Of a stretch of DNA of 64,000 bases, positions 44,242-47,034 are shown one piece after another. The DNA comes from Xestospongia bergquistia (taxonomy: Eukaryota > Porifera > Demospongiae > Haplosclerida > Petrosiidae). Below the pieces are notes generated by a model that saw only the letters and a program-made list of their open reading frames with translations, had not been told where the DNA came from and ran no database searches. The DNA lies in the NCBI GenBank assembly GCA_963965975.1, contig OZ014423.1, positions 2,480,001-2,544,000 on the forward strand. Direction: 5' to 3'. Numbering within the stretch: position 1 is the stretch's first letter; each line of letters begins with the position of its first letter. Made by a program: the position numbers and the translations under genes.

Positions 44242-47034
44242 TTACTGAATTCCTTCAGCTCTAAGCTCTTCTTTTACTCGTTTCAAATAATTTGGATCAG
44301 GATATCCATATCTATAGACAAAATAAAAACAATATTAATATATATTATTGATATAACTTAAATTTATCATAATAACTAATGTATTAATATTTATAGACTT
44401 ACGGCTGTCCTCTTATAACAGTCTTATGATGGATATCATTCCATACTACACAATTAGGTGTATGGGTAATATGTGAAGTACCCACTGTGAATATGAGACC
44501 AGCATCGAAAGCTTTCTTTAGAAGTTCTAAGACTTCTCGTCCCTCAGGACAGTCAGGAAGATAGGCAGTACGAGAAGTACCTTGATAACGTTGACCTATA
44601 TAATATCAAACATAATGATAATGATATTAGATTAATCAACTTTAATAACCTGGGTTAGGGTGTTGAGGTCCTTGTGTTCCACTAGGAATATGATAGTTAA
44701 TAACAATACAACCATGACCCTCATAACCAGGCAGTGATTGCTTTGTAAAAGAATGACTCATTGTACCACCAGGAGGTTGGTTACCTCTGACTGGTTTTAG
44801 AGCTACCTTACACATTGGACAATAACATGAATGCTTTAGTGCTTCATCAAGACAAGATTGACAGAACTTTTGGTTACAACATGTAGTTTCAACTGGTATA
44901 ATCAAAACTTCATTTAAGCATATTGGACAACCTGTAATGTAAAGAAAAACATATTGAATGTTGTATAACACTATTAATTTAATTCAACAGTCATTATGGT
45001 CATTATTATTAACTTACTTTCTTTATAATTACCGCCAGTAGCACCTTTAGGCTGATCTTGATCTGGAGTTGTAGTTCCAACATGAGATAAAGGTCTAGTA
45101 TTTTCAGTTAAACTTGGTTTATTACCAGGAGATACACCAGAAATAGGACTTAAGCAACTAACTTTGAAGCCACTACTATTATGATCTGTGTTAGAAAAAT
45201 GTGGGTTGTCATTAGCTTCCATAATATTTCTCTTTGTAATAAGATGTTGGGCAAAACAAACATAAGTAGGCTCATTAATGATAACAATACGAATGTCCTT
45301 TAATTTGTCACTAGTAAAATTAAATGTTAATATAGCATTGAGTATAGCTTCTGCTGCCAGTTCCTTTTTCACAGAAAATACTCCTGTACTAATAGCAGGT
45401 AAAGAAATTGATGATGCTTTTAACTTCTGTGCTTCAATTAGTGTATTAGTAACAGCTTGATGTAATAATTCTGAACACTTCTGATCAGAGACAAAAGGAG
45501 AACCTACTGGACCCACTGCATGAATAACTTGCTTACATTTAAGATTACCTCCGGCTTGAGTAATAGCAACCCCTCCAACTGGAACAAGACCTTTTTGCTT
45601 TATAAATACTTTGGAATGTTTCTGTAATTCTCCTTTGCTAGCTATGTTTAATGCTCCAGCTACACCACCCGTGTGCTCTAACTGTTCATCAGCAGCATTA
45701 ACTATAACATCAACATTCTCTGACACTATGTCACTTCTTTTAACTGTGAGTGTACGATTGTTACCCAAAAACATTATCTGGAAAGAACCTGTTTTAGTGG
45801 GTAGTTTAACAGGTTTGGACTTGCTCACTTCAGTTGGTATTGATTTAATATATTTTAGGTTGGCAGTTGCTGGTACCAATTTAGCACTGGTTGAAATATC
45901 TGCTGATAGTGACTGTGTTGACTTAGCATTGGTTGAAATATTTCCTATATGATGTAGAACATCATCGATGTTGGCAGTCTTGTCAAAACGAAGATTAGCT
46001 TTCTCTCTGGGAATAAACTCTTCAACCTCAACCTGTTGAGTCACATGAGTTATACGATCAATCATTTGTTTAGTAGATGTCACGACTTGTTGAGGACTAC
46101 CTATCTTGAGACTCTGCTCAACTACTTCCTTGCAATCCTTTAGTTGGCTCAGCCCTGTTTCTGCTGATTTTTCCTGCTCTGATAACACCTGTAGTTTACT
46201 GGCAGTGATTGTGTCCACCTCTCTAGTCAACTCTCTCTCAGACTGACGAAGAACATCAATCTTTTCTTCCACCATAACATGTATTTCTTCTTTGATAATT
46301 TTGTCTTGCTCTTTGATTTCATTTTCTCTATCCTTAAGATCCCTTAGGACATCAATAATAGCAGCAATCTTTTCACTAACTGGTTTCAGGTTTGTTTCTA
46401 ATTTTTGACAATGTTTGGGATAGCAGTCAGTGATTAGGTCATAATCATGACCTCGATGAATACGTACAGTACAGTCAAAACAAGCCAGTTCTTCACATGT
46501 TCCACAAAATATTTTCAAAGGTTCGTTATGAGTTGAACACTTTATCTCCCGCTTCACAGGAAGCAACTGAATGGCTGAAGTCGCTACCTCATCAAGATTT
46601 GTTATATTGTGACAGGCAATGGGAGCATACTTCTTGTGACCATTAATGCATTCTTGACAGAAAAATTCGGCACATTCCTTACAGTAACCAGTAGCATTAG
46701 TTGTAGTACAGTTTTTACAGGTTACTTGTTGTTGTCCTGACACTTTTATCAATAGATTGTGAACCTCCTTGAAATTATTAATTTGGAAAGCTGTAGGAAA
46801 GTCAGCTGCTCCATTTGGTTGGGGTAACTTAATACGATAACGACAGGTGGGACAAGAGATGAAGTAGTTATCTCCTTGAGGATCCAAAGGTAGGCCCTCC
46901 AAACATCGTTGACAAAAGGAATGGAGACATGGTAAGGACTTAGGATTGGTATAGAGATCAAGACATATAGCACAGGTGAGCTGTTCCTCCAGTTTCTTGA
47001 GAGCTGAAGTAGTAGATAGTCTCTTCACTGCCAT
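44242..47034 (-). CDS. TRIM-macro-RING-Deltex fusion E3 ligase (locus D)
   Basis: Four exons: 45018-47034, 44650-44931, 44403-44595, 44242-44311. The sum is 2,562 nt, 853 aa, in frame. Order: RING (~21-64, CAICLDLY ... CLHSFCQRC ... CPTCR), B-box 1 (~104-145), B-box 2 (~165-200, [15 protein letters not shown]), coiled coil (~205-345), macro domain (~420-600; [51 protein letters not shown]), second RING (CPICLNEV ... CNQKFCQSC ... CYCPMC) and Deltex C-terminal domain ([40 protein letters not shown], WNDIHHKT). Macro domains bind or remove ADP-ribose, and RING-DTC modules ligate ubiquitin and bind NAD+ or ADP-ribose. The chain thus resembles a TRIM head on a DTX3L/PARP9-like tail. The KH-like block of C and E is absent. 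Catalytic competence is inferred only. Confidence 0.9.

What the first reader, a model, noticed from the sequence alone, without database searches (positions are those of the whole stretch)
44242..47034. A single chain joins a TRIM head to a macro-RING-Deltex tail
Seen: four exons with consistent splice phases give 853 aa with RING, two B-boxes, coiled coil, macro, a second RING and a Deltex C-terminal domain. Known: in vertebrates RING-DTC (DTX3L) and macro domains (PARP9) are in two partner proteins, and TRIM ligases are separate; RING-DTC proteins can act on NAD+ and on ADP-ribose linked to ubiquitin. Inference: a self-contained ligase with two RING fingers that reads ADP-ribose marks and ubiquitinates or ADP-ribosylates targets, possibly in stress or antimicrobial defence. 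I know of no described protein with this architecture but could not search.
Basis: partly seen in the sequence, partly recalled or inferred. Interest (0 to 1): 0.88.

Follow-up and report, generated by a model that had tools for sequence, protein, structure and literature searches.

The report
TRIM head fused to ADP-ribose ubiquitin ligase
A sponge-like animal genome carries a gene that joins a TRIM-type ubiquitin ligase front end to an ADP-ribose-binding and Deltex-type ubiquitin ligase back end in one protein, and similar joins appear to have arisen separately in other animals.

Summary
The gene at 47034-44242 (minus strand) has four exons, three GT-AG introns and 853 aa. TRIM and macro lie in one uninterrupted exon, so that join needs no splicing. 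It is one of a tandem array: A (macro-RING-DTC, no TRIM), B (this gene), C (TRIM-middle-RING-DTC, no macro), D (decayed), E (TRIM-middle, tail decayed). The TRIM heads form one clade inside a large sponge TRIM-NHL family and show purifying selection (dN/dS 0.22-0.28). The tail is nearly A's, with dN/dS near 1, so constraint on it is not shown.

"No protein with this architecture" needs correcting. Macro-RING-DTC chains are frequent among predicted invertebrate proteins, and TRIM+macro+RING-DTC is predicted in corals and amphioxus. Trees reject one shared TRIM capture, so the join looks recurrent if those gene models are right. Nine literature searches listed no description of it.

Best reading: an ADP-ribose-directed E3. 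The macro would read mono-ADP-ribose, the DTC (catalytic His/Glu kept) would put ubiquitin on it, and the TRIM RING would dimerise, recruit E2 and perhaps extend the chain. Activity is inferred. New variant of a known kind.

The parts
44242..47034 (-). gene B, TRIM-macro-RING-DTC, 4 exons, 853 aa
46843..46974 (-). RING1 (aa 21-64), canonical C3HC4 ligands
46609..46719 (-). B-box 1 region (about aa 106-142, placed by eye; my ligand pattern for it matched no sequence)
   Evidence: second zf-B_box stretch; pattern
46438..46551 (-). B-box 2 (aa 162-199), ligand pattern matched
46033..46434 (-). coiled-coil helices (aa 201-334); DNA similarity to TRIM-NHL heads ends at aa 366 (45937)
45217..45795 (-). 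macro domain (aa 414-606), PARP14/PARP9 macrodomain-1 type, loop-1 Asn changed to Asp (NAAN to NAAD)
44810..44929 (-). RING2 (aa 674-713), lacks the canonical His
44248..44785 (-). DTC domain (aa 722-852) across three exons; His822 and Glu846 match DTX3L H707/E733
48211..51788 (-). gene A: N-terminal part (RRM-like by eye only), middle region, macro-RING-DTC, 6 exons, 920 aa, no TRIM
38396..40827 (-). gene C: TRIM, middle region, RING-DTC, 4 exons, 733 aa, no macro
32105..34499 (-). D: decayed copy (middle-region, macro and DTC fragments, frame broken, insert)
28605..30485 (-). E: TRIM-middle open frame, 626 aa; its RING-DTC part downstream (28513-28275) is decayed

Best explanation
Gene B encodes one fused E3 ligase. 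A TRIM-NHL-type head (RING, two B-boxes, coiled coil) was joined to a PARP9/DTX3L-like chain (macro, RING, Deltex DTC), and the fused gene then multiplied in tandem with swapping of the middle module. SHOWN in sequence: the single reading frame and splice sites, the array, the origin of the head in the sponge TRIM-NHL family, the near identity of the tail to gene A, kept RING1 and B-box 2 zinc ligands, and kept DTC His/Glu. INFERRED: (1) the coiled coil makes a dimer that pairs the ligase; (2) the macro binds mono-ADP-ribose placed on targets by PARPs, which this genome encodes; (3) the RING2-DTC unit esterifies ubiquitin to the 3' hydroxyl of that ADP-ribose; (4) the TRIM RING, the canonical one of the two, supplies or extends ubiquitin. 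The likely setting is stress or antimicrobial defence.
For: Anatomy. Head: nearest in the same genome are C (89%) and E (86%), then 75% or less; the seven next loci held all carry NHL repeats by Pfam (7 of 7), and DNA similarity runs from about the ATG to aa 366 in 6 of 6 of these compared. The five sponge fusion heads form one clade (SH-aLRT 100) inside TRIM-NHL. Head constraint: dN/dS 0.22, 0.28, 0.24; B versus C has 0 indels in 1098 coding nt against 11 in 588 aligned nt of 5' flank. Tail frame: A versus B has one indel (3 nt) in 1289 aligned coding nt against 7 in 744 nt of introns plus 3' flank, 4 of them of frame-shifting length; the larger linker difference (387 nt, from the coordinates) is also a multiple of three. 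Related frames not present in this assembly: P0121 (TRIM into RING-DTC) and P0123 (TRIM-middle). Catalytic residues: passages of PMC10810221 and PMC7615817 name H707/E733 of DTX3L and H582/E608 of DTX2; both are kept in A, B and C. Writers: 43 PARP match rows in the genome (exon pieces, not genes), at least five in frames of the same contig stretch and length that also hold a macro match. Chain extension on Ub-ADP-ribose by a second RING E3 is reported for RNF114/RNF166 (PMC12583694, passages).
Against: No transcript or protein evidence was available. Tail dN/dS is near neutral (macro A-B 0.95; RING-DTC A-B 0.97, A-C 0.69, B-C 0.80), so function of B's tail since it parted from A is not shown. 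The simulated chance of no stop under neutrality is not small (0.29 for 27 substitutions). RING2 lacks the usual His; C's copy also lacks one of the paired cysteines. The macro loop-1 Asn is Asp in B, which could weaken hydrolysis and perhaps binding. C lost a B-box 2 His (HRGH to PRGH), E lost its tail and D is decayed, so the array is in flux. The step in which a TRIM RING extends ubiquitin on ADP-ribose has no direct precedent in what I read.
Confidence: 0.55

Rival explanations
1. B is a real gene, but a conventional TRIM ligase: the macro and DTC act only as binding modules that bring a TRIM RING to ADP-ribosylated targets, and RING2-DTC chemistry is dead.
For: RING2 lacks the canonical His; tail dN/dS near 1; RING1 and B-box 2 ligands intact with purifying selection on the head.
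Against: The DTC His/Glu pair is kept in B; DTX2-type ADP-ribose ubiquitylation relies only weakly on the RING-stabilised closed conformation (PMC7615817, passages); both Amphimedon rows share the odd RING2, so it is not decay private to B.
Confidence: 0.25
2. B is a by-product of recombination in a decaying array and has no selected function as a whole.
For: D is decayed and E has lost its tail; tail dN/dS near 1; the DTC exon to 3' flank is 97-100% identical to A, a conversion-like patch.
Against: Head dN/dS 0.22-0.28; no frame-shifting indel in the coding DNA compared, against several in adjacent non-coding DNA; related fused frames on other contigs; all splice sites kept.
Confidence: 0.17
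3. Two products: an unspliced form ends just after the macro domain (686 aa TRIM-macro), and the RING-DTC exons are used only in part of the transcripts.
For: Read-through of intron 1 gives an in-frame stop after 14 further residues (predicted protein P0002); TRIM-filamin-macro rows without a DTC match exist, e.g. Montipora P0264 and unnamed P0260.
Against: All splice sites and phases are intact and shared with A and C.
Confidence: 0.12
4. Assembly chimera of tandem copies.
For: Tandem copies are up to 97-100% alike over the last exons.
Against: Three units of the array (B, C, E) carry a TRIM head; C and E join TRIM to the middle region in one exon; fused frames P0121 and P0123 lie on other contigs; no N at the B junction.
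Confidence: 0.03

Closest known systems
PARP9-DTX3L complex (human)
   Same: macrodomain-1 type macro plus RING-DTC acting together; DTC His/Glu kept
   Different: two proteins in human, one chain here; no PARP domain found in B; TRIM head in place of DTX3L's N-terminal KH domains; RING2 without His
Invertebrate macro-RING-DTC (DTX3L-like) predicted proteins, e.g. Amphimedon LOC109585277 (P0005), amphioxus P0022
   Same: macro-RING-DTC order and homologous tail
   Different: no B-box in these rows
Coral, soft-coral and amphioxus TRIM+macro+RING-DTC predicted proteins (P0035, P0087, P0042, P0060)
   Same: the same domain order, in three of them with a longer stretch between TRIM and macro (filamin in P0087)
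   Different: heads of other TRIM lineages; the trees reject one shared capture; merged gene models or alternative 5' ends are not excluded for them, least of all for P0035
TRIM-NHL proteins of sponges
   Same: RING, two B-boxes and coiled coil; listed TRIM-NHL rows are 43-76% identical to the head
   Different: NHL C-terminus replaced by macro-RING-DTC
RNF114/RNF166 reader-writer ligases (PMC12583694, passages)
   Same: a reader of ADP-ribose-linked ubiquitin joined to a RING, as proposed here for the TRIM RING
   Different: other domains (Di19-UIM); the seeding Deltex is a separate protein there

Membership tests
TRIM (RBCC) family | RING, B-box(es) and coiled coil in that order at the N-terminus | tested here: met
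   (coiled coil as long predicted helices)
TRIM-NHL subfamily | C-terminal NHL repeats | tested here: not met
   Pfam finds no NHL in B; the head is nonetheless nested in sponge TRIM-NHL
Deltex (DTX) family | C-terminal RING followed by DTC domain | tested here: met
   DTC E 2.6e-56 over profile 2-133 of 133; RING2 recognisable but atypical
Deltex (DTX) family | DTC catalytic His and Glu (DTX2 H582/E608, DTX3L H707/E733) | tested here: met
   His822 and Glu846; the numbering of the known proteins is from passages of PMC10810221
Deltex (DTX) family | canonical zinc-ligand set of the RING | tested here: not met
   His absent, CCNQKFC; whether zinc is still bound is unknown. That the set defines the family is my own criterion
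Deltex (DTX) family | ubiquitin transfer to NAD+/ADP-ribose | not testable with these tools
   needs an enzyme assay
DTX3L | KH-like domains (PF21718) | tested here: not met
   no PF21718 match in B; A's middle region also lacks one at E up to 1 and matches KH_DTX3L-type regions only weakly (hhalign probability 37%)
Macrodomain-1 type hydrolase of PARP9/PARP14 | macro fold of the macrodomain-1 type | tested here: met
Macrodomain-1 type hydrolase of PARP9/PARP14 | Asn/Ser and Gly flanking loop 1, hydrophobic plus aromatic in loop 2 | tested here: not met
   Asn is Asp in B (NAAD); Gly-Gly and Val-Phe kept; criteria from passages of PMC10221186, mapped by eye
PARP9/PARP14 (macroPARP) | PARP (ART) domain | tested here: not met
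   no PF00644 in B

The most novel reading that the evidence does not exclude
B is a one-chain machine for ADP-ribose-linked ubiquitin: the macro docks on mono-ADP-ribose, the Deltex unit seeds ubiquitin on the sugar, and the TRIM RING dimer extends the chain, uniting steps done by PARP9/DTX3L-type and RNF114-type proteins in human. Animals have built this repeatedly: TRIM heads were captured separately in sponges, stony corals, soft corals and amphioxus, with the two ends kept and the middle sensor (macro, KH-like, filamin or nothing) swapped.
Probability: 0.28. Interest if true: 0.8.

Novelty: new variant of a known kind. Interest (0 to 1): 0.55.

Why it matters
A natural fusion of a macro reader, a Deltex seeder and a TRIM RING predicts that these steps work together and gives one recombinant protein on which to test it. 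Repeated, independent TRIM captures would also suggest that a dimeric TRIM-type RING is a useful partner for ADP-ribose-directed ligases.

Tried and rejected
A single-sequence structure prediction of gene A's long frame (P0007) gave pLDDT 33 and was not used. Pfam found no KH or RRM in gene A even at E up to 1; hhalign of the middle region against KH_DTX3L-type regions gave probability 37%, P 0.00036, so I call it only weakly KH-like. My pattern for B-box 1 matched none of seven sequences; B-box 1 rests on the second Pfam stretch. No Rfam match at gathering scores and no tRNA in the window. Fold search rows shown are of the macro part, so the TRIM fold was not tested by it.

Trees: both used the quick method on rows chosen by hand. 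The head tree has 41 of the 349 fetched proteins plus 3 window genes; its rows P0060 and P0042 have long branches and their placing is unsure. In the tail tree 7 of 51 rows gave no tail by my RING pattern and were dropped (P0252, P0267, P0297, P0010, P0070, P0110, P0053). P0060 and P0048 are named as isoforms of one amphioxus gene, and P0242 and P0054 have identical tails, so some fused rows may be alternative 5' ends or merged gene models. In P0035 the macro seems by eye to lack its first strand, so that join may be a model error. In the macro alignment one of ten rows, P0087, was missed by my pattern; one search shows that it reads NASD, so it too has Asp at the loop-1 position.

Rejected: one ancient TRIM-DTC fusion (one clade of fused heads p-AU 2.5e-83; one clade of fused tails p-AU 3e-8). 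Set aside: ADP-ribosylation of ubiquitin as the chemistry, on PMC10810221 (passages). Nine literature searches listed no paper that I could recognise as describing a TRIM-macro-RING-DTC protein; I judged by titles and abstract starts and looked into eight papers by passages (PMC7615817, PMC10810221, PMC13224862, PMC10221186, PMC11594159, PMC8242945, PMC12583694, PMC8195603). Many subscription papers are not in that library.

Full report
WHAT IS THERE. The window is C13:2480001-2544000 of an unnamed 146-Mb genome in 21 contigs. In the tail tree the nearest named rows are the sponges Amphimedon queenslandica (support 84) and Dysidea avara (92), so I take it to be a sponge; this is inference. The finding's gene (B) reads on the minus strand in four exons, 47034-45018, 44931-44650, 44595-44403 and 44311-44242, with GT-AG introns and phases 1, 1, 2, giving 853 aa. 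Pfam finds RING, two B-box stretches, Macro (E 2.6e-25) and DTC (E 2.6e-56). Exon 1, one 692-aa frame from stop to stop, already contains TRIM and macro.

THE ARRAY. tblastn, blastn and gene building show five related units on the same strand. A (51788-48211) has six exons and 920 aa with macro-RING-DTC and no TRIM. B is the finding. C (40827-38396) has 733 aa: TRIM, middle region, RING-DTC, no macro. D (about 34500-32105) is decayed. E (30485-28605) has an open TRIM-middle frame of 626 aa with a decayed RING-DTC stretch downstream. A, B and C share the phases of the last three introns. Outside the array the genome has one further DTC locus, on C7.

ORIGIN. The head's nearest relatives in the same genome are C (89%) and E (86%); the next is 75%. 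The seven next loci held (all on C2) are frames of 584-802 aa with NHL repeats, 7 of 7. In the protein database the next relatives are unnamed TRIM-NHL proteins at up to 76%. Blast similarity to 6 of 6 loci compared (of the 7) runs from about the start codon to aa 366 and does not extend far upstream. In the head tree the five sponge fusion heads (B, C, E, P0121, P0123) form one clade, SH-aLRT 100, inside the sponge TRIM-NHL rows; E's tail is decayed, and P0123's frame shows no DTC. The simplest history is one capture followed by tandem copying. B's tail is close to A's: 93% DNA identity over the macro part, 97-100% from the DTC exon on, which looks like conversion or a second copying event. 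P0121, from another contig of unknown species, has B's linker but joins the head straight to RING-DTC. So the middle module seems to have been swapped while the two ends stay.

SELECTION. Heads: dN/dS 0.22, 0.28 and 0.24 at dS 0.23-0.25, with no indel in 1098 coding nt (B versus C) against 11 in 588 aligned nt of 5' flank. Tails: macro A-B 0.95; RING-DTC A-B 0.97, A-C 0.69, B-C 0.80. On substitutions alone the tail is not distinguishable from neutral. On indels, A versus B has one 3-nt indel in 1289 aligned coding nt and 7 in 744 nt of introns and 3' flank, which points to a guarded frame in at least one of the two. The chance of no stop in simulated neutral drift is 0.29 at 27 substitutions and 0.09 at 54, so absence of stops is weak evidence.

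RESIDUES. RING1 and B-box 2 ligand patterns match in B; C has lost a B-box 2 His. The DTC residues matching DTX3L H707 and E733 are His822 and Glu846 (numbers of the known proteins from passages of PMC10810221; the 26-residue spacing of that pair fits the DTX3L chain printed). RING2 lacks the usual His in A, B, C, P0121, P0003 and both Amphimedon rows, while the Dysidea, coral, amphioxus and fish rows have it, so this looks like a clade trait. The macro loop-1 Asn is Asp in B; the eight other rows aligned have Asn, but Montipora P0087, missed by that alignment, also has Asp. By the criteria in PMC10221186 (passages) Asp predicts loss of hydrolase activity. A reader that does not erase the mark would suit the mechanism proposed, but loss of binding is equally possible.

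OTHER ANIMALS. Of the 120 rows listed for the tail query (of 1365 hits), 108 carry both Macro and DTC by my count of the precomputed Pfam column; the query itself holds both, so this is not an unbiased share. Four of the 120 also carry a B-box: Porites, Dendronephthya, amphioxus and Montipora, and Pfam positions give the order RING, B-box, Macro, RING, DTC in these four. With the Porites row as query, 10 of 120 listed rows (of 286) carry B-box plus DTC, two of them (one the query itself) with Macro; another 10 carry B-box plus Macro without DTC. Nine of those last ten are ENA rows. ENA rows seem to be unspliced frames (P0003 reads on through an intron), which would put the join in one exon; I did not check this in their DNA. 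Heads of fused rows as one clade are rejected (17 rows against 27, p-AU 2.5e-83), and so are tails (11 against 33, p-AU 3e-8). Thus TRIM and ADP-ribose modules have met repeatedly, if the gene models are right.

MECHANISM. Most likely an ADP-ribose-directed E3: dimer by the coiled coil, docking by the macro, seeding of ubiquitin on the ADP-ribose 3' hydroxyl by RING2-DTC, with the TRIM RING supplying a canonical E2 platform and possibly extending the chain. The chemistry of the third step is reported for DTX2 and DTX3L (PMC7615817, PMC10810221, passages), and extension by a second RING for RNF114/RNF166 (PMC12583694, passages). For B all four steps are inference. The genome has PARP writers (43 PARP match rows, exon by exon).

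KNOWN OR NEW. PARP9 and DTX3L together resemble PARP14 in domain make-up (PMC13224862, passages), and sponges are known for shuffling immune-type domains (PMC8195603, passages, on TRADD-N in Amphimedon). Nine literature searches listed nothing on this fusion that I could recognise. I file it as a new variant of a known kind: Deltex-like by RING-DTC with His/Glu, TRIM by its head, neither in its usual form.

Noticed in passing
window 33892-33404 (minus strand): About 490 bp inserted into the macro part of decayed copy D, with inverted ends around tagtctcgtcccaagacctact; looks like a small transposon-like element.
   Followed up: no
window about 5400-24200: Tandem duplication with a period of mostly about 9.7 kb (96-99% over the 300-nt samples; one pair is 10.96 kb apart); a CO-dehydrogenase flavoprotein C-terminal domain lies in it at 8795-9292.
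   Followed up: partly
window 27154-27954 (+): PTR2/POT-family transporter fragment beside gene E.
   Followed up: no
G000 C2, C7, C10, C1, C5: Large clusters of TRIM-like heads: 114 match rows to the B head in the genome (a lower bound); 7 of 7 loci scanned are TRIM-NHL.
   Followed up: partly
G000 C7:5390439, 5620355, 5650447, 6567686 and C1:195812: Open frames of 1008-1205 aa that hold both a Macro and a PARP match, possible PARP14-like writers in one exon.
   Followed up: no
P0012 (Lates calcarifer DTX3L): Two DTC stretches and two RING stretches in one predicted fish DTX3L.
   Followed up: no
window 40827-38396, gene C: B-box 2 His changed to Pro (RIPRGH), and one of the paired RING2 cysteines lost.
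   Followed up: partly
P0087 (Montipora capricornis), residue 830 on: Its macro domain reads NASD, Asp at the same loop-1 position as in gene B: two TRIM-fused chains share this change.
   Followed up: no
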